Virus record (IMG/VR): IMGVR_UViG_3300049001_000044
Location: 279,230-343,229 of that record
Length of the DNA stretch: 64,000 bases
Strand: one strand, 5' to 3'
Source: a virus
Positions within the stretch are counted from its first letter, which is position 1. Every line of letters begins with the position of its first letter. The notes under the pieces are model-generated. The model made no database searches. It had not been told where the DNA came from and was given only the letters and a program-made list of their open reading frames with translations. Below are positions 22,622 to 64,000 of this stretch, piece after piece. The translations under genes and the position numbers were made by a program.

Positions 22622-22622
22622 G

Positions 22623-23207: not shown

Positions 23208-23683
23208 TTGCCCTCGTAATCTTTTGCTTCGGCGCAGTTCAAGCCATCCACATTCGGCCAGACATGAGTGAAGTCGCCGTCAGGAATGTTGGTGAGGAAC
23301 CACGTCTTGTTGGATTTGATGTGATAGAAGGTTGGGCCCCTCAGGAAAAACCAACCATCCCAGTTGTCATCATCGGTATCCTTCTTATCGAAGAGAATGA
23401 AGTAACCGTTGCGATCTTCGAGATAACAGATCTTCTGCGTCTTGTACTCACGGAAGAGAGCTGCATAGGCATCATCCAACGTCAGCTCATCTTCCTTCGG
23501 CCCCAGCTCCTTGGCCTGCACTGCAGCTTCGACCTTCACCGTCTTCTCGCTGTAGCGACCATAGATGAGAGTGATGAGGATCAGGATCGAGACAATCACG
23601 ATAGCTGCTGCCGCGAACATGTTTACATTCTTGTACCACGGCCGCTTGATCGGAGGTTCGTAGTTGGGGTTGTTGTAGCTCAT
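23204..23683 (-). CDS. Single-pass membrane protein with soluble domain
   Basis: 159 residues. A short cytoplasmic start (MSYNNPNYEPPIKRPWYK) precedes one transmembrane helix (about 20-42) and a charged soluble domain rich in aromatics. Topology suggests an N-in anchor with a periplasmic domain, but no family is recognised. Coupled by ATGA to both neighbours. Confidence 0.7.
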   Translation of the reverse strand: MSYNNPNYEPPIKRPWYKNVNMFAAAAIVIVSILILITLIYGRYSEKTVKVEAAVQAKELGPKEDELTLDDAYAALFREYKTQKICYLEDRNGYFILFDKKDTDDDNWDGWFFLRGPTFYHIKSNKTWFLTNIPDGDFTHVWPNVDGLNCAEAKDYEGK

Positions 23684-24288: not shown

Positions 24289-24296
24289 AGTTCTCC

Positions 24297-24455
24297 TTAG
24301 GGTGAGATTCGATGTTGTTTGTATTTGCGGAGGCCGCACGTCTGGCATTCCCGCTCTTGAATGAACGAGTAGCCTTTCACCGCGCCAGTGCGTGAGCTAA
24401 TGATTTCAGTTTTGTGGATGGTGCTCCAGCGGCCCCAACTATGGAAGTGAAACAT
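24297..24455 (-). CDS. Small CxxC protein
   Basis: 52 residues with a single CQTC near the C-terminus and several His (FHFHSWGRW), which may bind zinc. A strong GGAGG sits 4 bases before the ATG. Ends 9 bases before the next gene. Confidence 0.7.
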   Translation of the reverse strand: MFHFHSWGRWSTIHKTEIISSRTGAVKGYSFIQERECQTCGLRKYKQHRISP

Positions 24456-24506
24456 GTTGCCTCCTTATCATACAGCTATTGTAGCTTGATGGCAACCTCA
24501 ATGAAA

Positions 24507-25856: not shown

Positions 25857-25860
25857 GCCG

Positions 25861-25868
25861 TATTTACG
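25861..25868 (-). promoter_or_regulatory. Possible late promoter CGTAAATA inside a small palindrome
   Basis: On the minus strand GCCGTAAATACGGC is palindromic and contains TAAATA. If used as a late promoter, transcription would begin almost at the ATG at 25856, giving a leaderless message. Could be coincidental. Confidence 0.35.
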
Positions 25869-25878
25869 GCACGTAGAA

Positions 25879-26124
25879 TCACGGTAGGAAGTAGATGTAC
25901 TTGGAGTCGATGCTCGTGACGTTCGTGTCGGTCATCGACGCCTTGTTCTTCAGGACACGGCCATCAGTGGAATCGGTCATGCGAGACAGCGTACGATCGA
26001 CGAAGGCCTTTGGATAGCGACGGCCCAGCTGCGTCTCGACGATGTGATGGAGCTGATTGCTGTCAGAGCGGACAGTGGTTTTCAGTGCGTTGATAATGAT
26101 GGATGGAACAGTTTGCTTTGCCAT
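25879..26124 (-). CDS. Hypothetical small basic protein
   Basis: 81 residues from the ATG at 26124 (AAAGG 8 bases before). Helical start (VPSIIINALKTTV), a middle helix with RRYPKAFVDRTLSRM and a short C-terminal beta segment. The pattern is compatible with a winged-helix DNA-binding fold but this is a guess. Confidence 0.65.
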   Translation of the reverse strand: MAKQTVPSIIINALKTTVRSDSNQLHHIVETQLGRRYPKAFVDRTLSRMTDSTDGRVLKNKASMTDTNVTSIDSKYIYFLP

Positions 26125-26170
26125 GGTGATACCTTTCATCGAAGTTAGTTAACGTAAAATTTTAGAACGT

Positions 26171-26251
26171 AGGAGGTGCTCGAAAAACTGCGTGTAGTGG
26201 CTGTCAACAGCTTTGCATGGAGGTCTCTGAGCACCTCTGGTAAGTCCCAGC
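26171..26251 (-). repeat. Five-copy intergenic element, copy B
   Basis: Read on the minus strand it starts GCTGGGACTTACCAGAG. GAGGTGCTC and GAGCACCTC form 9-bp end arms, with an inner GCTGT/ACAGC stem. Its GCTGG end abuts the stop codon of the YqeY-like gene at 26252. Confidence 0.75.
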
Positions 26252-26683
26252 TTATTGCTGCTTCAACAGCTCGTCGATGATCTGCGAAGCCAGCTTACCG
26301 TCGAACTTGCCTGCGAAGTTGTCCTTCAGGTACTTCATGCAGGTACCTTTGTTCAGCTGCAGACCAGATGCAGCCAGCGCATCCATGATCTCCTGGCCAT
26401 TCATTTGTTTCGGCAGATAGGCAGACAGAATCTTCTTCTCTTGCTCCATCGTCTCAGCACTGTCGTACGACCTTTGAGCGTAGAGGATAGTGAGGGTGTC
26501 ATCAACACCCTTGATGAATTTCTTGATGACTTGAATGACCTCTTGGTCGTTCGTCTCGCGGTTGCCGTCGTTTTTACCGATGGTTGCCGCCTCACCGATC
26601 AGGGTGGTGAGCAAAGTTGCTTCTGCCTTGTTGCCGTTCTTTCGTGCTTGCAGTTGGTCTGCTTTCAGTTGTTGCATCAACAT
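26252..26683 (-). CDS. YqeY/GatB-tail domain protein
   Basis: 143 residues, near the usual 145-150 of bacterial YqeY. ATLLTTLIGEAATIGKNDGN, VIKKFIKGVDDTL, EKKILSAYLPKQMNGQEI and MKYLKDNFAGKFDGKLAS follow the family pattern; the same domain forms the C-terminal tail of the tRNA amidotransferase GatB. The cellular role of free YqeY is unclear, though the fold binds tRNA in GatB. In a phage it may act on host tRNA or on amidotransferase; inference only. It lies 2 bases after the RNA ligase stop. Confidence 0.88.
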   Translation of the reverse strand: MLMQQLKADQLQARKNGNKAEATLLTTLIGEAATIGKNDGNRETNDQEVIQVIKKFIKGVDDTLTILYAQRSYDSAETMEQEKKILSAYLPKQMNGQEIMDALAASGLQLNKGTCMKYLKDNFAGKFDGKLASQIIDELLKQQ

Positions 26684-36534: not shown

Positions 36535-38025
36535 TCAGAATACCTTAACCTGGTATTTGCTTGCAAATCGCTCACCATCTTCTACGGTGTTTACAAGAGG
36601 TTCGCCTTTGATGTTCAGCGAAGTGTTCAGCAGAACAGGGCAGCCGGTCTTCTCATACCACGCCTCTAGCACAGCATTGAAGAAGGGCGACTCATCGTGC
36701 GTAACGGTCTGTAAACGACCAGTACCATCAGCATGGGAGACTGCTGGTAGAGTTGTAGGAACCTTTACGACGCAGACCGCCTGCATGTATGGCACCTTGT
36801 CCAACTTTCCAGGCATGATGAAGTGATCGTGCTTGTATCTGTCCAATACAGCAGGAGCAAATGGTCGGAACTTCTGTCGCTTCTTGATTTCATTGACGCG
36901 ATCCTTCATCAAGTTACTGCGAGGGTCACCAAGTAGAGAGCGATTGCCAAGAGCTCTTGGCCCAAACTCAGCTCTACCAGTCATCACACCACAAACGCCC
37001 GTCGTAAGCAGCTCTTTCACCACGTCTGATGGGTCGATGTCAGAGTCGATGTTCGTACCAAGCATCGCGTTCTTCCAATTCAGTTGAGTGCGCAGATTAT
37101 TCGCGATCGCGCCTAAGGAGTTACCAGCATCGCCAGGATTAGGCATGATCCAGAAGTTGTCGAACTTATCGCCCAGTTTGGTTACTACTTCAGCGTTCGC
37201 AAGACAGTTCAAAGCAACGCCACCTGAGTAAACGATGTTCCTGCAGTTTGTCATGTCCAATGCCATCTCAATAACGCGCGAAATCTTGTGTGTTATGAGA
37301 GTCTGCGCCGCGAGAGCCAAGTCATATCTGCCTTGTTCGCCTTTCGCTTGACAAGCAAACTGGCTGCCTCTCATACCTCGATGGAGATTGGTTGTTTGGT
37401 GAAGATGACCATCGAAGAATTCCTCCTGCATTTCTGCTGCGATGAGGTCTGCACTTGAAGGATTGCCGTATGCGGCCATACCCATCAAGATGTACTCTTC
37501 TTCATTGGGCTTCAGACCTACCAAGTCGGTTACGGCACTGTAGAACAGACCGAGTGAGTGAGGATACTTCAGTGACCACACCCGCTTTAAGTTCGAACCT
37601 TTCCCATGCCAAATGGATGCAGTGGTTAGCTCGCCGATTGCGTCGATGACAACGCACACTGCCTCATCAAAACCTGAAGTGTAGAATCCACCGGCTGCAT
37701 GGGACTGGTGGTGATCGGAGTATTCGATCGGCGCAACAATTCCAAACTGCTTCATGTACTCTTTCGGAAAAGCCTGCATGACCTTGTCGAACTGCCCAGC
37801 CTTTATGAATCTCGCTTTTCTTCCCCATGGGTTCTCAAACCAAACGACCTTGCCTGGGGAACCAAACTGCAAAGCGTCTTGAATCAATTCGTTGTTGAGG
37901 TGTTCGTCGTTCTTAATCCTACTGTACCTTTCGGCATGGCCAGCAAAGAGGATGTCTTTCGTGACCGAATCTACGACCGAAATCGAAGCATCATGGTTAT
38001 CGGCGTTGACGCCCCAGATAATCAT
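36535..38025 (-). CDS. Carbamoyltransferase, NodU/CmcH family
   Basis: 496 residues, slightly shorter than typical NodU proteins (550-600). Features: a start resembling the Kae1-like fold (IWGVNADNHDASISVV), YSDHHQSHAAGGFYTSGF, VVIDAIGE, NEEEYILMGMAAYG, NIVYSGGVALNC, GRAEFGPRALGNRSLLGDPR, RQKFRPFAPAVL, GCPVLLNTSLNIKGEPLV. These are the HxxxH metal site and the carbamoyl-AMP domains. It transfers a carbamoyl group to a hydroxyl on a sugar or hypermodified nucleobase; the acceptor here is unknown. Divergent from the lipoprotein gene. Confidence 0.93.
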   Translation of the reverse strand: MIIWGVNADNHDASISVVDSVTKDILFAGHAERYSRIKNDEHLNNELIQDALQFGSPGKVVWFENPWGRKARFIKAGQFDKVMQAFPKEYMKQFGIVAPIEYSDHHQSHAAGGFYTSGFDEAVCVVIDAIGELTTASIWHGKGSNLKRVWSLKYPHSLGLFYSAVTDLVGLKPNEEEYILMGMAAYGNPSSADLIAAEMQEEFFDGHLHQTTNLHRGMRGSQFACQAKGEQGRYDLALAAQTLITHKISRVIEMALDMTNCRNIVYSGGVALNCLANAEVVTKLGDKFDNFWIMPNPGDAGNSLGAIANNLRTQLNWKNAMLGTNIDSDIDPSDVVKELLTTGVCGVMTGRAEFGPRALGNRSLLGDPRSNLMKDRVNEIKKRQKFRPFAPAVLDRYKHDHFIMPGKLDKVPYMQAVCVVKVPTTLPAVSHADGTGRLQTVTHDESPFFNAVLEAWYEKTGCPVLLNTSLNIKGEPLVNTVEDGERFASKYQVKVF

Positions 38026-38101
38026 TGTCTGATCTCCATTATATAAAGTGCGATGAAGTACTTATTCAAATTGATTTGTAACAAGTTTTACACTTAACCT
38101 G

Positions 38102-38130
38102 TTTACAATCAGCGCGAACTTTAGTACAAT
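38102..38130 (+). promoter_or_regulatory. Sigma70-type promoter for the lipoprotein gene
   Basis: TTTACA at 38102-38107, a 17-base spacer and TACAAT at 38125-38130, each one mismatch from the bacterial consensus. It lies 32 bases before the ATG at 38163. This is the clearest host-type promoter in the window. Confidence 0.8.
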
Positions 38131-38162
38131 AAATCCATACTAACTCTCAGCGAGGTTTAAAA

Positions 38163-39029
38163 ATGAAGAAAATCAATGTGGCGGCAACTGTCCTGGTATC
38201 GATGATCCTCTCGGCCTGTGGCGGTGGAGGCGGTGGTAGTTCCACCCAAACCCCACCAGTCGCACAAGTCCCGGTCTCCCTGCCTATCCTCAACATTAAC
38301 GACCAACTCACCAAGTCCGCAAATGCTGACACCCTGGGCTTCGAGCCTGCGAACATGTCCCACACCTCGGGCGAACTGCAAACCAACACTGGGTTCTGGG
38401 GAGTGAAGTCGGCTTCCGCCTACTACGAGAACGTGGTGGGGACGATCGACCCGAATACGAACATCGCCAACGTCACCTTCAACTGGGACATCACGTCCTC
38501 GCAAACCCCTGGCGTTGTGAACTTCTCCAACATCACCTACGGCCTGCACCCTGGCTCCGCCTTCTCCACCACGAAGAAGCTCCCTGTGCGAGTGACGAGC
38601 ATGGGAGACCAGGTGGTAAATGCGGATGTGAAGACGAGCTGCGAGACCACGTGCTCCTACCAAACGATGCTGGACGTCTTCGTGATGAGTTCGAATAGCA
38701 CGAGCAACGCGGACATCGGAACCGAGATCGTCATTCTGACGGATCGCAACATCGGTCCTTCTGATCTGACGGGTGAAACAGCAACGATCGGCGGCGTCAC
38801 CTACAAGGTCGTGCACAACGGCTTCATCACCAACTGGAACGCCATCCAATACTTCGCGCCCATCGGTACCCCGATTAACTCGATGAAGATTAATGTCAAG
38901 GACTTCGTCAACGACGCTTTGCAACGTGGCTGGATTAAGAGCACCGACTACCTGGTCTCCATCGAACTGGGCACGGAAGTAATCCAGGGTAAGGGCAAGA
39001 CCGAGATCAAGAATCTGCACTTCAACTAA
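38163..39029 (+). CDS. Secreted lipoprotein with GH12-like glycoside hydrolase domain
   Basis: 288 residues. Signal peptide with lipobox LSAC (16-19) followed by six Gly, so Cys19 would be lipidated. The rest follows the GH12 (endoglucanase/xyloglucanase) jelly-roll: FWGVKSASAYYENV, MLDVFVMSSNST, GTEIVILTDR with candidate nucleophile Glu188, NWNAIQYFAP, INVKDFVNDALQRGWI, and SIELGTEVIQGKGKT with candidate acid/base Glu272. The Trp usual after the nucleophile is replaced. C-ending codons dominate, unlike its neighbours. It has its own sigma70 promoter and terminator, suggesting a transferred moron. It may degrade plant glucans, or alter the cell surface and exclude other phages. Confidence 0.8.
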   Translation: MKKINVAATVLVSMILSACGGGGGGSSTQTPPVAQVPVSLPILNINDQLTKSANADTLGFEPANMSHTSGELQTNTGFWGVKSASAYYENVVGTIDPNTNIANVTFNWDITSSQTPGVVNFSNITYGLHPGSAFSTTKKLPVRVTSMGDQVVNADVKTSCETTCSYQTMLDVFVMSSNSTSNADIGTEIVILTDRNIGPSDLTGETATIGGVTYKVVHNGFITNWNAIQYFAPIGTPINSMKINVKDFVNDALQRGWIKSTDYLVSIELGTEVIQGKGKTEIKNLHFN

Positions 39030-39050
39030 ATCCTTTCCCTGCAAACAACG

Positions 39051-39075
39051 AAGGGTAGCGTAGGCTACCCTTTTT
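39051..39075 (+). terminator. Intrinsic terminator of the lipoprotein gene
   Basis: AAGGGTAGC/GCTACCCTT stem with a 4-base loop and TTTTT on the plus strand, 21 bases after the stop at 39029. Confidence 0.9.
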
Positions 39076-39082
39076 GACGTGC

Positions 39083-39171
39083 GGACCTCCCAGAGACCTC
39101 CTACCTACTTGATGTAGAAGTTAGTGTCGAAATAGGCTATGCATCTCTGGACCTCTCTGGTAAGCTCTAGC
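39083..39171 (-). repeat. Five-copy intergenic element, copy C
   Basis: Minus-strand reading starts GCTAGAGCTTACCAGAGA and overlaps the stop codon of the gene ending at 39167. It shares with copy D the internal ACACTAAC, a CTAC(ATCAA)GTAG hairpin and GTAGGAGGTCTCTGG. Ends pair through CCAGAGA/TCTCTGG. Confidence 0.75.
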
Positions 39172-39946
39172 GATAGTAAGAGTGATGCATGTCCTTGATT
39201 GCGTAGAAGTCATCTACTGAATCCATGCCCAAGACCTCTGCTCGATACATGATCTCTGGGAAGTTACTAGCAACCTTCATGTCCAAGTTAATGGCCTGTC
39301 CGTACTTCGTAAGCCTGGTCCCTGGTCCAAGAACATGATAGTTATCGATCCTCCGTTTTGGCGCTTCACCCTCGCGAATCTTTCGGAAGATATCGCAGAC
39401 CAGATCCATACCCCACGAGTCACCGAAGAAGATGCAATCTGACGCATTGAATTGGTTGTACTCTAATCCCATTCGATAGTTGTGCGGGAAGTAAATCGTG
39501 CGATCACCAATCCAATTGTCTCTTAATTGATCCATCACGCTGGTGTCAGGGTCAAAGACGTTATCGTACCGACATTTGAACACGACATCGTAGCGGAAGC
39601 CCATCTCAATCTCATGTGCACGCTTAAGATGGTTGGCAATCATCATCGACCAATACAAACTGCCAAAAGGAACGTATCCCATTGGCTCCTGCGCCTTGAA
39701 CAAATCTTCTTGCGTCTCAATGACGTAGGAAATTGGATTGAATTGTAACAGCTGTTCAGTCAACCAGTCCTTGTCAAGTTGTTGGTACTCGCCTATTGAA
39801 TGATCAGGAAGTTTCCAAGTGTTGTAGTCCCAAGCATGACAGAAGAAGTCAACTTGAACTCCTTCTGCATTAAAATATCTGAGGATAGATTTCCGAGCGA
39901 ACTCAATCGACCTAGGTTGCCCGGATAAACAGACTGCGATTCTCAT
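39167..39946 (-). CDS. Glycosyltransferase-like protein
   Basis: 259 residues from the ATG at 39946. The start MRIAVCLSGQPRSIEFARKS is typical of a group of viral and bacterial proteins annotated as glycosyltransferases; later FKCRYDNVFDPD and SDCIFFGDSWGMD may hold metal-binding acids. Last gene of the sugar operon, overlapping the upstream gene by 35 bases. The sugar acceptor is unknown. Confidence 0.7.
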   Translation of the reverse strand: MRIAVCLSGQPRSIEFARKSILRYFNAEGVQVDFFCHAWDYNTWKLPDHSIGEYQQLDKDWLTEQLLQFNPISYVIETQEDLFKAQEPMGYVPFGSLYWSMMIANHLKRAHEIEMGFRYDVVFKCRYDNVFDPDTSVMDQLRDNWIGDRTIYFPHNYRMGLEYNQFNASDCIFFGDSWGMDLVCDIFRKIREGEAPKRRIDNYHVLGPGTRLTKYGQAINLDMKVASNFPEIMYRAEVLGMDSVDDFYAIKDMHHSYYR

Positions 39947-40451
39947 AATTGACACACTCAGTGGATAGGGAAAGGGTTTGCAGATGGTAATAGAACTTGG
40001 CGGCGTCATCTACGCTTGGACCGCGGATTTGATTGACGGGAATGTTCTTGAGATTAGTGTGGTACTCACACGCCCTATCGAATTCCCAACTGCGAGCGAT
40101 GAACACGCATGGGTTAACACTCGTCAGCCAATGCTTCTTGTCGAAGCCACCTGTCATGTAGTAGATGAAGTTCTTTTGAAGGTCGACCTTCTTGTCAGCA
40201 TCGTACACCATCTCGATGTGCCTTACGTCGAACATCACATCAGTGTCGTACGCCATACAGATTTTGAATTCGACGTGAGTCTGAAATTCAGCTGTCTTCT
40301 TCTTGTGCGATACAGTTTCGAGGGCAAGAAACTTGTCTTCGTCAAAGTGATGGAAGAAGGTCATTGGGAATGGGAACCACTTCTGAAGCTTAGCTTGAAG
40401 TTCAGTGGTGTCCACACTCTTGGTTCCGTAAAAGCAAACTGCGTAAGTCAT
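39912..40451 (-). CDS. Hypothetical protein of the sugar operon
   Basis: 179 residues. MTYAVCFYGTKSVDTTELQ and MAYDTDVMFDVRHIEM recall the start and acidic segment of its downstream neighbour, so it may be a reduced or diverged glycosyltransferase-like protein. No catalytic motif is certain. Confidence 0.65.
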   Translation of the reverse strand: MTYAVCFYGTKSVDTTELQAKLQKWFPFPMTFFHHFDEDKFLALETVSHKKKTAEFQTHVEFKICMAYDTDVMFDVRHIEMVYDADKKVDLQKNFIYYMTGGFDKKHWLTSVNPCVFIARSWEFDRACEYHTNLKNIPVNQIRGPSVDDAAKFYYHLQTLSLSTECVNYENRSLFIRAT

Positions 40452-40458
40452 GTCAACC

Positions 40459-40551
40459 TCAGTAGATGAACGGATCGGATTTGTTCTTCTTTCGCTTGTA
40501 CTGGCGATATGCCATCTTCCAGGATTCGAGTAAGTTCTTAATGAAGGTCAT
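40459..40551 (-). CDS. Tiny basic protein
   Basis: 30 residues: MTFIKNLLESWKMAYRQY then KRKKNKSD. It overlaps the SGNH-like gene stop (ATGA) and ends 8 bases before the next ATG, consistent with coupled translation. An amphipathic basic peptide; function unknown. Confidence 0.55.
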   Translation of the reverse strand: MTFIKNLLESWKMAYRQYKRKKNKSDPFIY

Positions 40552-41390
40552 AGGATGTTTCTCATCTTGATTTGATCGTGCAGATATTTAGCCCACGCCG
40601 CATGTCCTGACTCCAATGGGTGACCACCATTTCCTGTTGGATTTTCAGGATAGGACCATTCGCAGAACCACGTTGTCTCCACATTGCTGAACAGCTGGCG
40701 CAGCGTGAAATTTTCTGGCGCGTAAATGAAGTTAGGAGCATTGAAGTTGACCAACTCAAACATCGTCTGTAGCTCTTCAGACTCGACGGCTTTCTCAACG
40801 TCATCCCTTTCGTAGTATTGCTGGATTGAAGACACGAGCGAATGGGTGAATACGTACTTGATCTTCTTCGACTCCAAGAATGTCTTCAGTGAGATGATAC
40901 TTTGCAGGTAGTTGGTAATGTTGTAGATGGGATCACCACTTACCCACTTAACGTGCTTCTTCAGGTAGTCTAGAAATTCAGGTGACAGATCAGTGGTGTT
41001 CTTTTGGATCTGTGCGACAAGATCAGGGATGAACTGTCGCCATTGCCCACGATGTCTAGTCTCAAACCGCTCGTATGCCGTCCATCCGACGATCACGAAG
41101 ATGTCTTCAGGCTTGTGTGTCTTGAGCAACTTGCCAACCGCTGAGATGGTAGTGCGAGCAATCCTTTCGTTGCTGCTTCCGCCCAGACCTTCGTTAAGTA
41201 CCTCCATGCCGAGCGAGCGAGCCAACACCGCAGGCCACGCATGATACTCCATATGAGCGTAGTGTTGAGGGGTCAACGCGCTGTAAGTGCGGCTAGTTGC
41301 AACACCAAACTTCTTTTCATCCCATCCAAATTGTTTATTGCCAAGTTCGCTACCCTCAGTTAGCGAACACCCGTTCGCGTACAAAATCAT
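40548..41390 (-). CDS. SGNH hydrolase-like protein
   Basis: 280 residues. NGCSLTEGSEL at the start (nucleophile Ser block, GDS-like), EGLGGSSNERIART (block with Gly/Asn), VIVGWTAYERFE, and HPLESGHAAWA near the C-terminus (acid-x2-His block). These fit SGNH/GDSL esterases, a family that removes or transfers acyl groups on sugars. In this operon it may acylate or deacylate a glycan. Coupled to its neighbours by ATGA. Confidence 0.75.
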   Translation of the reverse strand: MILYANGCSLTEGSELGNKQFGWDEKKFGVATSRTYSALTPQHYAHMEYHAWPAVLARSLGMEVLNEGLGGSSNERIARTTISAVGKLLKTHKPEDIFVIVGWTAYERFETRHRGQWRQFIPDLVAQIQKNTTDLSPEFLDYLKKHVKWVSGDPIYNITNYLQSIISLKTFLESKKIKYVFTHSLVSSIQQYYERDDVEKAVESEELQTMFELVNFNAPNFIYAPENFTLRQLFSNVETTWFCEWSYPENPTGNGGHPLESGHAAWAKYLHDQIKMRNIL

Positions 41391-41980
41391 GTTACGTCCT
41401 TCATGGTGATAAGAGTGTGCGGGTCAACTTTAACCACTGTCGCCTTCGAAGCACGTGCCGCAGCTATCCCACTTGGTGAATCTTCGAAGATAACAGTATC
41501 ATCGTAATTCACCGAAAGCTTTTCCATTACTTTTTGAAAGATTTCTGGATCAGGCTTAGGCTTGCTAACCTCATCTCCTGCAATGACTAAATCGAGGTAT
41601 GGCTTTACGCCGATCTTTTCCAAGATCAGATCAACATACAGACGACGAGAGTTACTTGCGACAGCAATGTAGAAGGGATTTGCTGAGAAATGTTCCATCA
41701 CCCTAATCGCTTCTTCGTTGCTAGGCAGGTTGGACATCAGCGACATCGTCGCCTCTTGCTTTAAGAGATCAATCTTGCGGACGTCTGCTGCTTTGAGTTG
41801 GTACTTAGCGCGCAAAACTTCCAACTTGTCAATGGTGCGAACGCCGTCGCTTGCATCAAGAAGAGGAAGTTTGGATGCTTCCTCACCAATGACTTCAAGT
41901 ACGGCTTGACGGAATGCGGAGGTGTGAATGGATGAGGTGTCGACTAACACCCCATCGAGATCAAATATTGCAAGTTTCAT
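41387..41980 (-). CDS. HAD-superfamily phosphatase
   Basis: 197 residues, standard for the beta-phosphoglucomutase subgroup. FDLDGVLVDT with Asp7 and Asp9, VASNSRR (motif II), SKPKPDPEIF (motif III Lys) and FEDSPSGIAAA (motif IV). A helical cap follows the first motif. It probably dephosphorylates a sugar phosphate for the neighbouring nucleotidyltransferase pathway. Confidence 0.88.
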   Translation of the reverse strand: MKLAIFDLDGVLVDTSSIHTSAFRQAVLEVIGEEASKLPLLDASDGVRTIDKLEVLRAKYQLKAADVRKIDLLKQEATMSLMSNLPSNEEAIRVMEHFSANPFYIAVASNSRRLYVDLILEKIGVKPYLDLVIAGDEVSKPKPDPEIFQKVMEKLSVNYDDTVIFEDSPSGIAAARASKATVVKVDPHTLITMKDVT

Positions 41981-42413
41981 GTGTGACGATGGACACGTAG
42001 TCCGTGCAAATGCCGTAGATGCTCTTATCTATTGCGTTTACGTCGCCAATCAGTTCAGGCATAACTGCGATCGAGTGCCTGCTCAGTTGTTTCCCAGGGT
42101 AGGTCCAAATATAACCTGACGACGTCAATGTGAAGTCGTCTTCTTGGTGCCAGAAGTAATGCTTGGTCTTACAAATACGAAGAGTGTTTAGGGCAGCGAA
42201 GTTCTTCGCATGGCACCATAACCCTGGCGTTTTTAGGAATGAAGGATTGACATGGTAGGTGGGCGCGTCGTGTCCTAACCAGATACCGCCTTGGTGGAAC
42301 CATACATCAATCTCCACGTCATATCCCGCTGCGAGCGCCTCCTCAATGTAGGAGGGCTCATTCTCGCGGTTAGACGGGCCGTTCCTATTACCTCGGTGCG
42401 CGATCAGTCTCAT
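41961..42413 (-). CDS. Short glycerophosphodiester phosphodiesterase-like protein
   Basis: 150 residues, about 60 percent of a full GDPD barrel. IAHRGNRNGPSNRENEPS (the His-Arg-Gly and Glu-Asn motifs), AAGYDVEIDVWFHQGGIWLGHD (Glu-x-Asp metal site and second His). The C-terminal strands of the TIM barrel appear reduced. In phage sugar clusters such proteins may cleave a phosphodiester in a glycan precursor. Overlaps genes on both sides by 20-26 bases. Confidence 0.8.
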   Translation of the reverse strand: MRLIAHRGNRNGPSNRENEPSYIEEALAAGYDVEIDVWFHQGGIWLGHDAPTYHVNPSFLKTPGLWCHAKNFAALNTLRICKTKHYFWHQEDDFTLTSSGYIWTYPGKQLSRHSIAVMPELIGDVNAIDKSIYGICTDYVSIVTHETCNI

Positions 42414-43110
42414 GCTTGATGTATGCCTCTAAATCTTCAGGAGTTCCCACACCATGCATTTCGTCAACTGGCATGGTAATTACTTTGTGACCCAGCGCTA
42501 CGTTTTGAGTGTAGACTGGAGCAACGTAGAATTCGTTCTTGTAGCGGATGTTCTTCTTAATCATTAACTCCGCTGCATCAACGAACTGACTACCCTTGTA
42601 CCAAAAGTAGAGACCTGCTGTGGCATGAGTGCTGACGGGTACCTTCTCAACGACTTCAGTTACGAACCCATGCTTATCCAGCTTCGCGAAGCTCCACTTT
42701 GGATCGGTATCTTCGAACGTCATGATCACACCATCAGCGTGTGTGTAGAGAGGAGTGACACTTGCTTCGTTGAACTTGATGATGTTGTCAGAGTTCATGA
42801 TCGCCAATGGCTCATCATTGTTAATGAGGTGCTTTGCTTGAAGCACGGTACATGCGGCTCCCTCAGTCACGCCATCAATGACGACCACATCACATCCTTC
42901 GTATCGTTCTTGAAGGAAGTTCTTCACGTCGTATTTCTCAACGTGCTCTTTCTGGACGATAAAGATCAGATGTCTAATTGCAAGAGGGAACGAATCTACG
43001 ACATGCTCAATCATCGTCTTACCAAGGAACTTGATGAGGGGCTTTGGGTCAGTGTATCCCGCCGCACTGAAGCGGGACCCTAAACCCGCCATTGGAATGA
43101 GAAGGTTCAT
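42388..43110 (-). CDS. Sugar-phosphate nucleotidyltransferase
   Basis: 240 residues from the ATG at 43110; a GTG at 43119 is an alternative. MNLLIPMAGLGSRFSAAGY is the G-x-G-T/S-R nucleotide loop, followed by DPKPLIKFLGKTMIEHV, IMNSDNI (sugar-nucleotide/Mg site) and VVEKVPVS. It activates a sugar phosphate to an NDP-sugar that the operon's glycosyltransferases could use. Confidence 0.9.
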   Translation of the reverse strand: MNLLIPMAGLGSRFSAAGYTDPKPLIKFLGKTMIEHVVDSFPLAIRHLIFIVQKEHVEKYDVKNFLQERYEGCDVVVIDGVTEGAACTVLQAKHLINNDEPLAIMNSDNIIKFNEASVTPLYTHADGVIMTFEDTDPKWSFAKLDKHGFVTEVVEKVPVSTHATAGLYFWYKGSQFVDAAELMIKKNIRYKNEFYVAPVYTQNVALGHKVITMPVDEMHGVGTPEDLEAYIKHETDRAPR

Positions 43111-43111
43111 C

Positions 43112-43303
43112 TTAATCACCCAACTTCAGTTCGATGCTCGCGCCCATCTTCAGAAGTTCCTCTAGAGATACCTCCATAACAGAGGCGTACTCCTCACCAC
43201 GAGTGCGAACGTAGAGGTAGTATTTCCCATCTCGTTCGTTAAGCGAGACATAGGCGGGGAGGGTTTGACCGGTTACTTCAGTGTATGCGTAGATGTTGTT
43301 CAT
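43112..43303 (-). CDS. Small hypothetical protein
   Basis: 63 residues, beta-rich in its first half (YVSLNERDGKYYLYVRTRG), then a helix. It precedes the nucleotidyltransferase directly. No family recognised. Confidence 0.65.
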   Translation of the reverse strand: MNNIYAYTEVTGQTLPAYVSLNERDGKYYLYVRTRGEEYASVMEVSLEELLKMGASIELKLGD

Positions 43304-43311
43304 TTGATTCC

Positions 43312-43581
43312 TCAGGGGTTCTTTTTAACGTATCGAATATTAGGAGGTTCATCTACCTCAACTGCGCCATCAAACATTGATGTATCAATCCAGTCAACAT
43401 CATAGTTGTTTGGGCCGGTGCTGACTCTATACTGCTCACTTGGAAGACCAGCATTTCGTGGCCCTGTCTCTACGAACACTGTCTCACCCGCGTAATCACC
43501 ATGCTCAGGTTTATCAGCGAGTCGATAGCACTTCCCAATCTGTGGTCTAAACGTGGCCTCAAATAGTTCCGCCATTTTCAT
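43312..43581 (-). CDS. Small protein with capsid-targeting-like N-terminus
   Basis: 89 residues. MKMAELFE|A resembles the ATPase start MKLQDLFE|A and the LxE|A processing site of internal head proteins. The remainder is a small beta-rich domain (GKCYRLADKP, AGETVFVETG). A packaged protein inside the sugar operon would be unexpected; resemblance may be coincidental. Overlaps the upstream gene by ATGA. Confidence 0.65.
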   Translation of the reverse strand: MKMAELFEATFRPQIGKCYRLADKPEHGDYAGETVFVETGPRNAGLPSEQYRVSTGPNNYDVDWIDTSMFDGAVEVDEPPNIRYVKKNP

Positions 43582-44501
43582 TTGTTAGCCTCGACTTCGG
43601 TTAGGACTGCATTTAAATTGCGCTTGGGCGCTTCGTAGACGGACTTGAAGAAGGATGATGCGTCAGCGGTCATGTCAGCAATGTTCATACCCAGATCTTT
43701 CTTCAGTGGAATGAGCAGGTCTGCGCTCGCCTTCAACAGGCTTTCTTCGGTTGCAAACTTCGGTTTGATCTCTTCATGGAAGTACTTCTTGAACCAATCG
43801 TAGTCAGAAATCTGTGCGATGTCGAAGTCGGCTTCGATGTTGGCCATGTAGATGCCGAGCCTAGTGCCGTAGACAGCCCACACTCCGTTCTCTACGTCAG
43901 CACCAACAGAAGCCCAAATCAGCAGGCGCTTGTAGTTGGTTGCGTAGACAGAGTTTTGAATGAGACCTGTTGCTTTCGCACCGCGATCAAGAGTCATCTT
44001 CACACCTTCACGGAAGCCTGCGCGGAAGGCTTGGAAGGGCGAGCCATTAATGCACGTGTCGGAGTAGGTGTTGTTGAGCTGGACGTAGTTGTCGTCCCAG
44101 CAGAAGTCTACTTTTTCTTCGTCACGTGTTGCGTTCTCATGAGTGCGCATGTTCAACACGAAGTCTTTGGTCCACAGCTTCAGACCACCGTTGCCGTAGT
44201 GGAGACCGTTGACGATGTTCCTTGCTCCCCAGCTCAGCGTCTTGTCATCGAGATGGGCGGGGATGTCCAACTCCAAATCGAAGAACTCGTCGTAGACTAG
44301 GTTGTCGCCGTCGACAGTGATGAACTTATCAGTACTAGATGCGTTCGCGCAGGCCTTGTGCGCGCTATCAAATCCCTTTACTCCATCAACGCGTTGAGCC
44401 CATGGACACTGATCTTGCAGCTTTGCCCAGAACTCTTCCTTTTGCGGTTCATCATAGGAGAGGTAGAAGAGATCGAAGTCTGAGATGGAATGTTTAGCCA
44501 T
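43578..44501 (-). CDS. GT-A-like glycosyltransferase domain protein
   Basis: 307 residues. Paralogous to the N-terminal half of the fusion at 24507-25856: DLFYLSYDEPQKEEFW, AQRVDGVKGFDSAH, FITVDGDN (DxD-like), WGARNIVNGLHYGNGGLKL. No methyltransferase half. The acceptor could be DNA or a virion protein; nothing in the sequence decides. Coupled to both neighbours. Confidence 0.7.
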   Translation of the reverse strand: MAKHSISDFDLFYLSYDEPQKEEFWAKLQDQCPWAQRVDGVKGFDSAHKACANASSTDKFITVDGDNLVYDEFFDLELDIPAHLDDKTLSWGARNIVNGLHYGNGGLKLWTKDFVLNMRTHENATRDEEKVDFCWDDNYVQLNNTYSDTCINGSPFQAFRAGFREGVKMTLDRGAKATGLIQNSVYATNYKRLLIWASVGADVENGVWAVYGTRLGIYMANIEADFDIAQISDYDWFKKYFHEEIKPKFATEESLLKASADLLIPLKKDLGMNIADMTADASSFFKSVYEAPKRNLNAVLTEVEANK

Positions 44502-45123
44502 TTTGGAATGATACGGATAGAGGCCCCCTCACCGCGAACACTGAGAGATCATCAACGTCTTTCAGGTTAAGGCGAATTGGATTGGGCCAGGATGGGAGGT
44601 TGTTGTAAGTGGTGATTTCGTTGAGGATATTTACGTCCAACGAGAAGGCGCACTTCAGGTACGTCATGTCACCCTCCCTCGTAAAGTACATCTTGACGGG
44701 ATTTGAGATCGTCTTCAGCTTTTCCCCATCGTAGTAAATCTCCACAACACCTTCATCCTTCAACACCTTCAGTCGAATGTCATCCCAGTCATTAGGCTTC
44801 ACCTCATAAATGCCCAACCCAATATCTACGCGATTCAGTTTGACAGTGTGCGGTTGAATCTTTTGGAAGACAAACAACTTGTCATCAGGTATGATCGACC
44901 ACGAGATTGGATTCTCTTCGCCGGTGATGAACTTCAAACCCAACTCATAATCCACTTCTAAACATTTCTCATCTTCCACCGTCACGTCACACGAGCTAAT
45001 CGACTTAATTTGCAGAGTGGTGCTGTTAAAGTGGACGTAGAATTTTGGTTCGACGGGTGCGGGTGCGGGTGTTGGCGCAAAGTCTTGCGTGCTAGACAGC
45101 ACTTGCATGAGCTGTTCGATCAT
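44494..45123 (-). CDS. Hypothetical beta-rich protein
   Basis: 209 residues with a Pro/Ala linker (PTPAPAPVEP) after a short helix and then beta-rich sequence. It might be a virion component modified by the flanking glycosyltransferases. No family recognised. Confidence 0.65.
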   Translation of the reverse strand: MIEQLMQVLSSTQDFAPTPAPAPVEPKFYVHFNSTTLQIKSISSCDVTVEDEKCLEVDYELGLKFITGEENPISWSIIPDDKLFVFQKIQPHTVKLNRVDIGLGIYEVKPNDWDDIRLKVLKDEGVVEIYYDGEKLKTISNPVKMYFTREGDMTYLKCAFSLDVNILNEITTYNNLPSWPNPIRLNLKDVDDLSVFAVRGPLSVSFQNG

Positions 45124-45977
45124 ACTCCCAGCTTCCTTTCCATTGTGTTGATCATTTTATCGGTCATGAACTCTTTCACATGATAATGAAGAGGCAGCTG
45201 TTGAGCGTAGTTACCAATCTTCAACGAGCAATCCCTATTGAAGTAGTAGGGGACAATCTTAGTCCAGTCTTCGACCATGAACTGACCTTCAGGCCAACCT
45301 TGCAGTTGCGACTTCATGTGGACGAACGTAGGCAGGTCCGATTCAGAGTAGAGGTTGTAGGATGGGTAGTCTAGAATCTTTGCCGCGATACCGAACACAA
45401 CGTCAGTTGATACGAACTTTGGTCGATGTTCTGGCTCCAAGAATTCGTAGAAGCAGCGCTCCCAGTTGTTGAAGATGAACTCACAAAGACGGAAGAACTC
45501 AAAGTTCAAATCGTTCTTCTTGAAGTAGAACATCGCGCTGTAGACATTAGGAAGGTTCGACTCGGTGAAGGTCTTACGATAATAATCGCTAGTGATAACC
45601 TCCCCACGATACGTCTTCGCCTTCGTACAGAACACGCCTTCGCTGTCAGACAGCATATCCCACCAGTGAGAGATGTCACCAGGGAAAATCATGTCCGCAT
45701 CCAACTTGATTGTCTCATCGTAAGGCGTCATGTAGATCGCCTTCCATTCATTCTCCAACTTCCACGTGCTGTTCTTTGCGTGGTCTTCCCAAGGAATTTC
45801 AACCACTTGATCGAACACTTCCAGGTACTTGGCAGGAATGTTTGTGATCTCATCCTTCGTTACACCAATCGACAGATCATTTGGTCCTGTCTGGGACAGC
45901 TTCAACGACAGTGCGCATGCGTAAGCGAGACGTTGATACGATTCGCCTTGGGCAATAGTGAAGAAACCTCTACTCAT
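45120..45977 (-). CDS. Glycosyltransferase with DxD motif
   Basis: 285 residues from the ATG at 45977, which overlaps the preceding stop as ATGA; a GTG at 45986 is the alternative. SRGFFTIAQGESYQRLAYA, TPYDETIKLDADMIFPGD (DxD metal motif), SAMFYFKKN and YHVKEFMTD follow a GT8-like layout. Same architecture as the 290-residue neighbour (SPYDETLLIDCDFLV). Probably adds a sugar to a phage component. Confidence 0.75.
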   Translation of the reverse strand: MSRGFFTIAQGESYQRLAYACALSLKLSQTGPNDLSIGVTKDEITNIPAKYLEVFDQVVEIPWEDHAKNSTWKLENEWKAIYMTPYDETIKLDADMIFPGDISHWWDMLSDSEGVFCTKAKTYRGEVITSDYYRKTFTESNLPNVYSAMFYFKKNDLNFEFFRLCEFIFNNWERCFYEFLEPEHRPKFVSTDVVFGIAAKILDYPSYNLYSESDLPTFVHMKSQLQGWPEGQFMVEDWTKIVPYYFNRDCSLKIGNYAQQLPLHYHVKEFMTDKMINTMERKLGV

Positions 45978-46138
45978 TTGTACCACTCCGGATGTTCTTC
46001 TCTCAATTTAGCGTATGCTTCCTGCTCGTGCTGTCGATATTCAACAGCACGTTCTTCCCATCCAGGACCACCTTCATATCGAATCATGGTCGAATAGAGC
46101 ATCATGATCTGGTATTCTGCTTTTTCTTTCTCCGTCAT
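45974..46138 (-). CDS. Small hypothetical protein between glycosyltransferases
   Basis: 54 residues, charged and aromatic (MTEKEKAEYQIMMLYSTM, then EGGPGWEERA). ATGA overlaps with both glycosyltransferase genes support it as real. Unknown function. Confidence 0.65.
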   Translation of the reverse strand: MTEKEKAEYQIMMLYSTMIRYEGGPGWEERAVEYRQHEQEAYAKLREEHPEWYK

Positions 46139-47007
46139 TTGAGTGCCTCCATGATTTCGTTCATGTTGTTGAGTAGGGAAAGCTTGTTCATGCAGTGTAC
46201 GTTCAAACCGTTAGTCGTCACACCTTGGTACTTCCAAGTCTCTTGACGATCCTGGTGGAAGAAGTGTAATTTTGCTGGTGAGCTAATGCCGAAGAATTGG
46301 TCGGTATCAAGTGCAGATAGGATCGTTGGATCTGGTAGAGACACAACGTAGTTCGACTCTTCGAACAGACCGTTCAGAATGTGGATCGCAATGGAGAAGG
46401 CGTAGTCATTCCTAAACAAGGCGCCCGGAAAATCGTACGTTAGCTGATAGAAGTCCCAGTTGTCTTTGACGTGCTCTACCAAATCGAATAATCTCTTTGC
46501 CTTCTCGCCCTTTCGGAAGTAGATGACAGTAGCCCAGTACATTGGGATGCCGTATGGGTTCAACCTATCTTCCGCACCTTGAAGTTTGTTGTGGAAGAGG
46601 TCAGTCGCATACTTGTTGATTTGGAATTCCTCCTCACTGCCCCATACATGGGAGAGGACGTCGTTGCAGACGAGGAAGTCGCAGTCGATTAGGAGGGTCT
46701 CATCGTATGGAGACAAGTCATAGACCGTGCTTCTGCTTTCGTTCTTGAATTGGGCTTCGAACCCATAGTATTGAGTGTCACGATATCGACGGTTGTTGAC
46801 GAACTTTTGTTCTTGTTCTTCAATCAACACCACAGAGTCGAACAGTGTGTAGACGTCATGGCGAGGATCGACGGAGCCTTTATCGCTGATCAGGCAGACG
46901 TTGGTGCCTGGCATGTTCTTGCGGATAAAGGATGCGCACATAATCGCAAGCTGGACGTAATCAATACGGGCGTTATTGACGCCGAAGATTACAACACCAC
47001 GAGACAT
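46135..47007 (-). CDS. Glycosyltransferase with DxD motif
   Basis: 290 residues. Related in layout to the protein at 45120-45977: VVIFGVNNARIDYVQLA, SPYDETLLIDCDFLVCND (DxD), VIYFRKGEKAK, LHFFHQDRQETWKYQG. Second of the two GT8-like enzymes of the operon, possibly acting sequentially. One base after the preceding stop. Confidence 0.75.
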   Translation of the reverse strand: MSRGVVIFGVNNARIDYVQLAIMCASFIRKNMPGTNVCLISDKGSVDPRHDVYTLFDSVVLIEEQEQKFVNNRRYRDTQYYGFEAQFKNESRSTVYDLSPYDETLLIDCDFLVCNDVLSHVWGSEEEFQINKYATDLFHNKLQGAEDRLNPYGIPMYWATVIYFRKGEKAKRLFDLVEHVKDNWDFYQLTYDFPGALFRNDYAFSIAIHILNGLFEESNYVVSLPDPTILSALDTDQFFGISSPAKLHFFHQDRQETWKYQGVTTNGLNVHCMNKLSLLNNMNEIMEALK

Positions 47008-52897: not shown

Positions 52898-53359
52898 TTA
52901 GTCGTGAACCCAGAATGTTCGATTCACGTGCTCATCTCCGTAATGGATGAACTGATCATCGATGATCTCACTGATGACAGCCCAATTCCCATTGGCTAGA
53001 CCTGCGCCAATCATCGGGTAGTGAACGTCTTTCTTCAATGTACATGCCGCGACCATCACTGTCTCAAACGCCTGTTGGATGGCCTTGTACGAGACGTATT
53101 TCACTGTGGGGTCTCTGCCATAATTCTGCTGGGTGATCGCGTTGCCGATGATGAGGTCGTCAGTCACTTGAGCCCAAATGACCTCACCCAAAAGCAGACC
53201 GTTTGTCTCGTGCTCTTTGCGGTACACCTCGTACGCCATCGGATACTTGTCACGAATCTGCTTTGCAATGCCACTACCCATGACCCCTTGCGCGTTGCAT
53301 CCGTGGACGATGATTCCCTTCGTCACTGTTAGGATGTCGCCTACCTCAACTCTCTTCAT
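52898..53359 (-). CDS. Macro domain protein (ADP-ribose/ADP-ribose-1''-phosphate binding)
   Basis: 153 residues, a single macro domain. VEVGDILTVTKGIIVHGCNAQGVMGSGIAKQIRDKYP contains the ADP-ribose loop 1, and HYPMIGAGLANGNWAVI the phosphate-binding loop 2. Such proteins in yeast process Appr-1''-p left by tRNA splicing, and others remove ADP-ribose from proteins or nucleic acids. With two RNA ligases, an SLOG-type protein and an ART-like protein in the window, either RNA-repair clean-up or ADP-ribose reversal is plausible. Last gene before a terminator. Confidence 0.9.
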   Translation of the reverse strand: MKRVEVGDILTVTKGIIVHGCNAQGVMGSGIAKQIRDKYPMAYEVYRKEHETNGLLLGEVIWAQVTDDLIIGNAITQQNYGRDPTVKYVSYKAIQQAFETVMVAACTLKKDVHYPMIGAGLANGNWAVISEIIDDQFIHYGDEHVNRTFWVHD

Positions 53360-54292: not shown

Positions 54293-55188
54293 ACTGCCAT
54301 TTCTCCTGTGATAGCGGCGTGGTGTTGGTAACCAACCAGCTTGAAGTCGTCCATGGTAAAGCCATTGATATCCTTCACGTCAGGGTTGATCCAGAGTTTC
54401 GGTGGGTCGAACGGCTTGCGAGTCAGCTGCTCCTTGACCTGCTCAATGTGGTTCGAGTAGATGTGCGCATCGCCGATGGTCATGATCAGCTCGCCTACTT
54501 CCAAGCCAACGACTTGTGCGATCATGTGAGTGATGATGGCATAGCCAGCGATGTTGAATGGTGCGCCTAGGAACATGTCGTTCGAACGCATGTAGACTTG
54601 GCATGACAGCTTCCCACCACTCACGTAGAACTGGGCGAACATGTGGCAGGGCGGCAGAGCCATTTGATCAAACTCGCCAATGTTCATCGCAGTCAGAATC
54701 ATGCGACGATCAGTTGGGTCGTTCTTCAACTTGTAGATTAGCATGTCAAGCTGATCTACGTAGTCGTACTTACCGAAGAAGGCCTTTACCTTCTGGACAA
54801 AGGTGACAGGGGTCTTGCGCCAGTTGCGCCATTGAACGCCATACACACGACCAAGGTCACCAGCAAACTTGGCCTTTGGAGTCCAATAATCGGCTTCTGC
54901 GTTGCCTGACCAGATGGTGCGTTTCAGTGGATCACGAGTTCCATGCAGAATTTCTGCAAGCCTACGCTCATCACTCGAGCCCTCGATGAAGAACAGATCT
55001 TCAGATACGACTGACTTGAATGCGAGACGTTTGGTGGTGATGGCGGGGAATGCTTTCGACAGATCGAATCGCATTTGACGGCCAAAGACTGAGATGGTAC
55101 CGACGCCAGTACGATCCATTCGCTCCTCACCGTTAGTGAGGATGTCTTGGTATAGGTCTAGGAGTTGTTGTTCAGGGTAGTAGGACAT
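54289..55188 (-). CDS. thyA: Thymidylate synthase (or dUMP hydroxymethylase)
   Basis: 299 residues, 35 more than E. coli ThyA. DRTGVGTISVFGRQMRFDL, TTKRLAFKSVVSE, DLGRVYGVQWRNW, DPTDRRMILTAMNIGEF, ALPPCHMF (catalytic Cys181), RSNDMFLGAPFNIAGYA, GDAHIYSNHIEQ. Asn212 aligns with the E. coli Asn that selects dUMP; dCMP hydroxymethylases have Asp there, so a T4 gp42-like role is unlikely. A dUMP hydroxymethylase, as in hmU phages, cannot be excluded. It supplies nucleotides for phage DNA. Confidence 0.93.
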   Translation of the reverse strand: MSYYPEQQLLDLYQDILTNGEERMDRTGVGTISVFGRQMRFDLSKAFPAITTKRLAFKSVVSEDLFFIEGSSDERRLAEILHGTRDPLKRTIWSGNAEADYWTPKAKFAGDLGRVYGVQWRNWRKTPVTFVQKVKAFFGKYDYVDQLDMLIYKLKNDPTDRRMILTAMNIGEFDQMALPPCHMFAQFYVSGGKLSCQVYMRSNDMFLGAPFNIAGYAIITHMIAQVVGLEVGELIMTIGDAHIYSNHIEQVKEQLTRKPFDPPKLWINPDVKDINGFTMDDFKLVGYQHHAAITGEMAV

Positions 55189-55721
55189 GTTTTGATAAGC
55201 AGACCCTCTTCGTCGAGGATCCGAAATGCGGAGGTTAAAATCTTGGAGGCGTGCTGGAAGTGGAAGCCGTGTGCCTTGTCTCGATCAGCATTTCCTGCTA
55301 CGTTGAGGCACTCGACGTTGTTATTTACGATGAAGTAGACCAGCTCGGCTGCCTTCATGTCGTAGTCTACGCCATCAAGAAGGAGGGAGAGGCATGGCTT
55401 CTTTGCTGCATTCACATAGCGGAGAGTTAGCACTTCCCCTGCAGTGTCAAAGTTGGATGCTAGTCGGACGGTGGCGTCGCCTTCATACGCATTGGCCCTA
55501 GTGCGCGGTGGATAGTCTCTCGATGAGGAGACCGTCAAATTGAATTGGGCGAGAGTGGGATCATCACCTAACGCAGTGCGATAGCCTCGTGCAATGTGCC
55601 CACCTGTCTCAATTTGAAAGTCACGAGCAACAAACAGACCGGCCTGATCTGCACCGGTCTGTGCGCCGCTGATGACCTTACGTAACCCTGTGTAGGGCAG
55701 GTCAAGTAGCTTGTGATTCAT
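55158..55721 (-). CDS. SLOG/YpsA-type putative nucleotide-binding protein (molybdenum-carrier-like)
   Basis: 187 residues. [20 protein letters not shown] and [20 protein letters not shown], then [23 protein letters not shown] match the putative molybdenum cofactor carrier/YpsA branch of the SLOG superfamily, which binds nucleotide-like ligands in a Rossmann fold. In prokaryotes SLOG domains are often linked to NAD- or ADP-ribose-derived signals. Overlaps both DnaJ-like and thymidylate synthase genes. Confidence 0.85.
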
Positions 55722-63068: not shown

Positions 63069-64000
63069 ATGAAAACATTCAAACAATTCCTCTCCGAAGC
63101 CGAGAACGCAGGATACCACTACGGCGATCTTCAGTATGGTAGAGACACCGCCCTCGGGCGAATGAGTGGCAGGTCGACAGGCCATTTCGGTACCGGCGTC
63201 TACTTCCTCTCTCAACCAATGTCAAACACAGGTCGCGACGATCGCCCCGTCAAGAAAGTCGATCTTAGTAAGTACCACCTCGCCAAACCTCGAGGAAAAT
63301 CCGGCGCAAAACAACTTCACGACGCCCTCAAGAAAATCAACTCACTCTTACATAATGAAGACAAAGATGAAGAACCACGCCTGATTAGAAAAGCCGCTTT
63401 CGAACTATGGTTGGCCCTCATGCCTGCGAACGAAGATAAGATCATCGACATTATTAAGAAGAGCTTGGAAGTTGTGCGTGCTAAGTACGACGTCGTAAGC
63501 CATACCTCCGAATACGCAGAGAGTTGCTCCACTCTCGTAATGAAAGAATTAGGATATGATGGAGTTGACGTCAGAGGAATTGACGGCTTTGACAACACCG
63601 ATTATGGCACAGTCATCTATGCGAGAGAACTATCGCAAGACGATCTTACTGAAGCAAAATTCGACAAGAATGTAGATGTTGAAGAACACGGCGACGGCTA
63701 TTACACCTTCACTGTCAACGGTAAGTTCTACCTCTGCAGCTTCTCTCCTGAGGAAAACGTTAGCAAATACGGTCCAAACTTTAGCTTCGGTCTCTACGAC
63801 GAAAAAGCGGAAGGTAGCGATATCTCAGTCACTGGTACGGGTAATGAATATGAAGTCTTCTCTACTGTAGTTAAGATCCTTCGCGATTGGATGGAGTTAA
63901 AGAAAGCTGACTTCCATTTCACTGCAGCGAAAGACGAACCTTCCCGCGTAAAGTTGTACGATAGAATGGTAAAGCGGCTGAAGTTGGTTGATGGTTGGAA
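63069..64000 (+). CDS. Putative packaged ADP-ribosyltransferase-like protein (3' end outside window)
   Basis: 310 codons are visible, the end is beyond the window. MKTFKQFLSE|A is very close to the start of T4 internal proteins as I recall it (MKTYQEFIAE|A), with the LSE|A cleavage site at the same position. Then YHYGDLQYGR, GHFGTGVYFLSQP (like FGKGIYF of PARP-type enzymes) and LGYDGVDVRG ... DYGTVIYARE follow an ART-like order. From about 205, a second domain YYTFTVNGKFYLCSFSPEE ... KDEPSRVKLYDRM appears. By analogy with T4 Alt it could be injected with the DNA and modify host proteins. ART activity is inference. Confidence 0.7.
   Translation, partial: MKTFKQFLSEAENAGYHYGDLQYGRDTALGRMSGRSTGHFGTGVYFLSQPMSNTGRDDRPVKKVDLSKYHLAKPRGKSGAKQLHDALKKINSLLHNEDKDEEPRLIRKAAFELWLALMPANEDKIIDIIKKSLEVVRAKYDVVSHTSEYAESCSTLVMKELGYDGVDVRGIDGFDNTDYGTVIYARELSQDDLTEAKFDKNVDVEEHGDGYYTFTVNGKFYLCSFSPEENVSKYGPNFSFGLYDEKAEGSDISVTGTGNEYEVFSTVVKILRDWMELKKADFHFTAAKDEPSRVKLYDRMVKRLKLVDGW

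What the first reader, a model, noticed from the sequence alone, without database searches (positions are those of the whole stretch)
63069..64000. ART-like protein with a capsid-targeting leader: an Alt analogue
The first eleven residues align with the T4 internal-protein leader, and the following GHFGTGVYF and LGYDGVDVRG motifs resemble ADP-ribosyltransferase folds. T4 Alt is the known packaged ART, but this protein is unlike Alt elsewhere. It may be an injected effector acting on host RNA polymerase or other targets, perhaps including RNAylation-type chemistry.
Basis: partly seen in the sequence, partly recalled or inferred. Interest (0 to 1): 0.7.

Follow-up and report, generated by a model that had tools for sequence, protein, structure and literature searches.

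The report
Head-packaged ART-like protein of jumbo phage
A giant bacterial virus carries a protein with a T4-style tag for loading into the virus head, followed by an enzyme-like domain known from proteins that phages inject into their hosts, and then a second domain set off by what looks like a cutting site.

Summary
Window 63069-64000 is the first 310 residues of a gene; 20 more residues lie at the other end of the record, whose two ends share 127 bp. The record encodes T4-type gp21 protease and gp23 capsid protein. A motif scan put the ART-like domain in a phage family (26-50% identity to 50 aligned domains), mostly inside giant polyvalent proteins. Profile comparison links it to ART-PolyVal well above shuffled controls; T4 Alt does not match. 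So it resembles Alt in delivery, not in family. NAD use is unproven: H17, Y45 and D164 are present, but the usual Glu position is Gly in all 51 aligned rows (partly by selection). The 310 residues hold only two gp21-type sites, at the leader and at the domain junction; a marine phage protein with reversed domain order shows the same. Best reading: an injected ART-fold effector, perhaps released from its partner by the prohead protease.

The parts
63069..63101 (+). Capsid-targeting leader, residues 1-11 (MKTFKQFLSEA); predicted prohead-protease cut after E10
   Evidence: rules for residues 4, 7, 8, 10 from passages of PMC9026906; only match of a leader pattern in the whole record, 0 in the backward control
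63111..63632 (+). ART-like domain of the GHFG family, about residues 15-188
63180..63206 (+). GHFGTGVYF, residues 38-46 (ART strand 2; candidate catalytic Y45)
   Evidence: same in all A1 rows, but by construction of the search pattern
63552..63578 (+). GYDGVDVRG, residues 162-170 (candidate strand-5 acid D164; D/E/N in 28/15/8 of 51)
   Evidence: corresponds to the nearly invariant GxDG of ART-PolyVal rows; the mapping is my inference
63591..63620 (+). DNTDYGTVIY, residues 175-184; G180 stands where ART-PolyVal and PARP-like enzymes usually carry Glu
   Evidence: mapping by eye, inference
63645..63656 (+). Internal LTEA, residues 193-196: gp21-type site at the domain junction
   Evidence: one of only two [LI]xE sites in 310 residues
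63654..64000 (+). C-terminal DUF6934-like domain, residues 196-310; 20 more residues lie at the other end of the record (L003 up to base 188)
   Evidence: PA5oct relative annotated 'structural protein, ESI-MS/MS'
52898..53359 (-). Macro domain protein (T4 Tk.4-type family phrog_335); possible ADP-ribose-handling neighbour, not shown to act with it

Best explanation
The gene encodes a capsid-targeted, injected ART-fold effector. Late in infection the leader would bring the protein into the prohead core, and the phage's gp21-type protease would remove it after E10 (inferred from T4). The protein would be packed with the DNA and enter the next host with it (inferred). There the ART-like domain would modify a host molecule, most likely a protein, from NAD+; this is inferred from the fold family and is the weakest step. 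The C-terminal domain is a second packaged module, possibly cut free at E195.
For: Leader matches T4 IPII/IPIII and the tested CTS positions (passages). The record has gp21-type protease (E 1.1e-24) and gp23-type capsid protein (E 6.9e-94). The same leader heads many kinds of phage protein: 57 aligned sequences, 55 from the leader scan plus two from L007, with Pfam matches to GNAT, methyltransferase, SAM lyase, cytidylyltransferase and DPBB. The ART-like domain has 50 aligned relatives at 26-50%, 56 of 80 ORFs being 1000 aa or more. Pfam's ART-PolyVal is found over its cut-off in 17 of 73 of these records (3 of 25, 14 of 48), beside and not on the motif in the three proteins checked. A1 against ART-PolyVal: probability 76, score 38.6, against a best of 19.0 in 100 column shuffles. 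Of 19 stand-alone members, 13 have by my eye a leader-like N-terminus, 12 of the 13 with [LI]xE in the first 20 residues. Nearest viral model: a PolyVal ADP-ribosyltransferase.
Against: Foldseek in PDB gave nothing at E<1 and the best viral match is weak (E 0.022). VIA-align gives PARP-2 only Z 3.2 and 2.5, below a cyanophage ejectosome chain (Z 4.5) and another unrelated chain (Z 4.2). Gly stands at the usual Glu position, and strand 1 carries R rather than H in 18 of 50 rows, so catalysis is open. No proteomics for this phage. No late-promoter match near the gene. The S77 protease was found in only 5 of 13 leader-type records, and contig length confounds that comparison.
Confidence: 0.68

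Rival explanations
1. A packaged ART-fold protein that has lost transferase activity and works by binding (NAD+, ADP-ribose, nucleic acid or a host protein).
For: Gly instead of the usual Glu in all 51 aligned rows, though the row filter required G there; without that filter G in 94% of 63 rows. H17 varies to R.
Against: Other residues not fixed by the pattern are kept: R35 in 50 of 51, N91 in 50 of 51, T155 in 51 of 51, as if an active site were under selection; some ART clades use an acid other than Glu in strand 5 (PMC5512222 section 9).
Confidence: 0.2
2. An ordinary early or middle host-takeover ART (like T4 ModA/ModB) made after infection and not packaged; the leader resemblance is coincidence.
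For: No late promoter was seen nearby; the leader pattern occurs only once in this record.
Against: Leader fits all tested CTS positions and stands on diverse proteins in other phages; a virion-detected relative exists for the C-terminal domain.
Confidence: 0.12
3. Not ART-related: a different fold that happens to carry GxGxYF-like strings.
For: Weak structural matches.
Against: Profile comparison far above shuffled controls; weak Pfam matches to ART-PolyVal (3 of 51 members) and PARP (1 of 51), and to DUF3990 (5 of 51), which I recall as ART-related.
Confidence: 0.1

Closest known systems
T4 Alt
   Same: ART packaged in the head and injected; short N-terminal leader removed by gp21 (MELITELFDE in the T4 record; passages of PMC9026906)
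   Different: No sequence or profile match; Alt is of the R-S-E clade (PMC5512222), this has H and Y; different leader wording; extra C-terminal domain here
ART-PolyVal domains of polyvalent proteins (PF18760)
   Same: H-Y-D pattern, GxGxYF strand and GYDG strand; profile match on 44 columns; neighbours in the same giant proteins
   Different: Window protein does not reach PF18760; family-specific R-x-T-GHFG and DNxxYG motifs; small leader-tagged protein, not a giant one
T4 internal proteins IPI-IPIII
   Same: Leader closely alike
   Different: Cargo unrelated
DUF6934-like phage proteins (PA5oct EST35_0349, Vibrio phages ValKK3 and D479; phrog_16075, phrog_6387)
   Same: C-terminal domain, 20-37% identical to the window part
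   Different: Stand-alone or differently fused there; below the Pfam cut-off here (21.1-23.9 of 27 bits)
IMG/VR proteins L007/L008 (marine T4-like contigs)
   Same: MKTFKQFLEE leader, DUF6934-like domain and an ART-looking LYHQT domain
   Different: Domain order reversed; that ART-like assignment is by eye, with no Pfam match

Membership tests
T4 capsid-targeting sequence | N-terminal 10 residues, aromatic 4 and 7, [IL] at 8, E at 10 | tested here: met
   MKTFKQFLSE against T4 record and rules in PMC9026906 passages
T4 capsid-targeting sequence | Phage encodes gp21-type protease and gp23-type head | tested here: met
T4 capsid-targeting sequence | Protein is packed, cut and injected | not testable with these tools
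   Needs proteomics
T4 Alt family | Sequence or profile similarity to Alt | tested here: not met
T4 Alt family | R-S-E catalytic residues | tested here: not met
   H17 and Y45 at strands 1 and 2; R-S-E definition from PMC5512222 section 9
ART-PolyVal (PF18760) | Score over Pfam's gathering cut-off | tested here: not met
   Window domain has no match; 3 of 51 members weakly, best E 0.02
ART-PolyVal (PF18760) | Profile similarity above controls | tested here: met
   Score 38.6 against at most 19.0 in 100 shuffles; without the window 40.5
ART-PolyVal (PF18760) | H in strand 1, Y in strand 2, D in strand 5 | tested here: inconclusive
   H17, Y45, D164 in the window; family varies (H/R; D/E/N); strand mapping inferred
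ART fold | Structural match to solved ARTs | tested here: inconclusive
   PARP-2 Z 3.2 and 2.5 among weak rows; Foldseek nothing at E<1
ART enzymes | NAD+-dependent transfer | not testable with these tools
   Needs assay
Polyvalent proteins | Large multidomain protein | tested here: not met
   310 + 20 residues, two domains
DUF6934 (PF22028) | Score over cut-off 27 bits | tested here: not met
   21.1 and 23.9 bits

The most novel reading that the evidence does not exclude
One leader carries two effectors: the phage packs an ART-like/DUF6934-like polyprotein, and its prohead protease cuts it inside the head at the leader (LSE10) and at the domain junction (LTE195), so that two separate proteins, one of them an ART-like enzyme with an unusual active site, are injected. 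Distant T4-like phages have built the same device with the domains in the other order.
Probability: 0.33. Interest if true: 0.75.

Novelty: new variant of a known kind. Interest (0 to 1): 0.55.

Why it matters
It links two known delivery routes for injected ARTs, the T4 head leader and the giant polyvalent proteins, through one domain family that uses both. It gives a readable rule (leader plus [LI]xE) for finding injected effectors of uncultured jumbo phages, and a sharp prediction: two cuts and two products in the virion. If the family is active without the usual Glu, it would be a new ART active site.

Tried and rejected
Alt homology: rejected. L009, brought in as a relative of the ART-like part: set aside as chance, a 365-aa ORF with no ART motif seen. 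tblastn of the window ART-like part in phages at E 10, of L156 and L131 domains in phages and of L156 in plasmids at E 0.001: no match; at E 10 an empty list is odd, so I do not lean on it. PDB by sequence: only chance rows, mostly helical. VIA-align: no bacterial ART toxin or PolyVal chain among the 50 rows shown; absence says nothing. Single-sequence fold of the 310 residues: pLDDT 35.9, unusable. Late-promoter scan: 14 matches against 16.9 expected. General enrichment of [LI]xE at ORF starts in the window: weak, 12 of 74 ORFs (16.2%) against 12.6% of other 16-mers. Avoidance of [LI]xE inside leader cargo: 38 seen, 41.3 expected by shuffling, while other ORFs of the same loci show 1005 against 833; suggestive only. 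Internal-site pattern in other leader-type ART members: not seen, most hold [LI]xE inside the domain, which speaks against a general rule. Of the C-terminal relatives, D479_392 has no [LI]xE at all and D479_391 none at its start.

Papers: passages of PMC9026906, PMC10052503, PMC9503650, PMC7824862 and PMC5512222, plus section 9 of the last; the rest only as search listings. Searches listed no paper that I recognised as describing this leader-ART pair; I did not open all listed papers. DUF6934: 0 papers.

Full report
What is there. The ORF at 63069 runs 310 residues to the window end. The window is the right end of a 343,229-base virus record whose last 127 bases repeat its first 127, as expected of a closed circle, and the frame continues there for 20 residues to a stop. 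The pieces were read apart.

Leader. MKTFKQFLSEA matches T4 IPII/IPIII (MKTYQEFIAEA) and IPI (MKTFKEF), read from the T4 record. In T4, ten residues suffice for packing; residues 4 and 7 matter for targeting and 8 and 10 for cutting (passages of PMC9026906). All four fit. The record carries a gp21-type protease and gp23-type capsid proteins. A leader pattern occurs once in the record. In viral contigs a similar strict pattern hit 98 stretches; I read the 80 listed loci, which gave 81 proteins. Of these, 55 distinct ones of 60 aa or more, with two proteins from L007, were scanned against Pfam. The cargo is varied: GNAT, methyltransferase, SAM lyase, cytidylyltransferase, DPBB, HAD. By eye L031, L044, L054 (with its copies L061 and L089) and both L062 proteins also look ART-like, but Pfam does not confirm it.

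ART-like domain. Direct searches found no relative. A scan for GHFG[TS]GxYF gave 82 stretches; 80 loci were read, giving 80 ORFs, of which 56 are 1000 aa or more, 6 are 500-999 and 18 shorter; lengths are lower bounds where a locus ends. I aligned 50 domains with the window (A1). The filter kept 59 non-redundant domains with a DNxxYG[ST]V end motif, and of these the 50 of 240 aa or less. So invariance of GHFG.G.YF and of DN, G180 and V182 is partly by construction. Positions not fixed that way: R35 50 of 51, T37 50 of 51, L87 51 of 51, N91 50 of 51, T155 51 of 51, G165 51 of 51. Without the end filter, D175 is 94% of 65 and G180 94% of 63. One genome scan gave 5 relatives among 50 candidate stretches; all sit in ORFs longer than 1000 aa.

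Link to ARTs. Profile comparison with 12 ART-PolyVal domains from the same kind of records gives probability 76 and score 38.6 on 44 columns; 100 column-shuffled controls reach at most 19.0, the reversed profile 16.3, and an unrelated profile (A3) 16.3. Pfam sees ART-PolyVal in 3 of 51 members and DUF3990 in 5 of 51, weakly. Model: pLDDT 89.7, pTM 0.86. Its best viral match is a PolyVal ADP-ribosyltransferase at E 0.022; PARP-2 rows span the model at Z 3.2 and 2.5, but unrelated rows score as high, so the fold test is inconclusive. By alignment H17, Y45 and D164 could form the H-Y-D set described for polyvalent ARTs (PMC5512222 section 9). Gly180 stands where ART-PolyVal rows often have Glu (by eye). 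Alt does not match.

Leader-type relatives. Nineteen of the 80 ORFs have the motif within 75 residues of the start; 13 of these have by eye a leader-like N-terminus, such as MKDFIKQLLRKELNEA in L122, and 12 of the 13 carry [LI]xE in the first 20 residues. A gp21-type protease was found in 5 of these 13 records (one below cut-off), 1 of 6 other small or unclear ones, and 0 of 30 with giant proteins (one-sided Fisher 0.0013 for 5 of 13 against 0 of 30). No giant-protein record in that call exceeds 65 kb while 8 of the 13 leader-type ones are over 100 kb, so length confounds this.

C-terminal domain. Residues about 196-310 match Vibrio and Pseudomonas phage proteins (44 records at E up to 1), including PA5oct EST35_0349, recorded as structural by ESI-MS/MS. 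D479 has three such genes in a row, with starts MEFRTFLTEA, MNDFKQFMVEA and MKTLQTYMVEA. A further copy, MRIDEIFD, lies within 21500-26500 of the same record.

Junction. The 310 residues contain exactly two [LI]xE sites: LSEA at 8 and LTEA at 193, the domain junction. Composition shuffles put sites in both places in 0.67% of trials, and nowhere else in 0.055%. L007/L008, with the two kinds of domain in reverse order, likewise have two: 8 and 142, between the domains. L007 and L008 are near-copies and count once; the test was thought of after seeing the sites. ValKK3 ORF276 has LTEA at its junction but two other sites as well; most other leader-type ARTs have sites inside the domain. The two-product model is therefore a hypothesis.

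Verdict. A T4-style packaged ART-fold effector of a family otherwise seen mainly in polyvalent proteins, perhaps processed into two. Packaging and injection are inferred from leader and head genes; catalysis and target are unproven; RNAylation has no support.

Noticed in passing
window 52898-53359 (-): Macro domain protein of the T4 Tk.4-type family (phrog_335, Pfam Macro), about 10 kb from the ART-like gene
   Followed up: partly
window 55158-55721 (-): SLOG-family (cpYpsA) protein, another nucleotide/NAD-signal type gene
   Followed up: partly
window 7465-8187, 8191-8793, 9312-10805, 43312-43581 (all -): Four more ORFs with leader-like starts (MQLIKELMALKEG, MELLKQLLALSEA, MKLQDLFEA, MKMAELFEA); the second resembles the Alt leader; the third matches phrog_1250 and weakly an AAA ATPase
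   Followed up: partly
L062 5215-7293: Two tandem MKTFK-leader proteins with LYRG and R-TSRD strings, by eye like R-S-E ARTs; no Pfam match
   Followed up: partly
L003 449-1303: GIY-YIG homing-type endonuclease downstream of the gene's end
   Followed up: partly
window 36535-47007: Run of glycosyltransferase-, carbamoyltransferase- and nucleotidyltransferase-like ORFs, by eye
   Followed up: no
L094-L111, L192-L193: Further matches of the two viral scans that were fetched but not read
   Followed up: no
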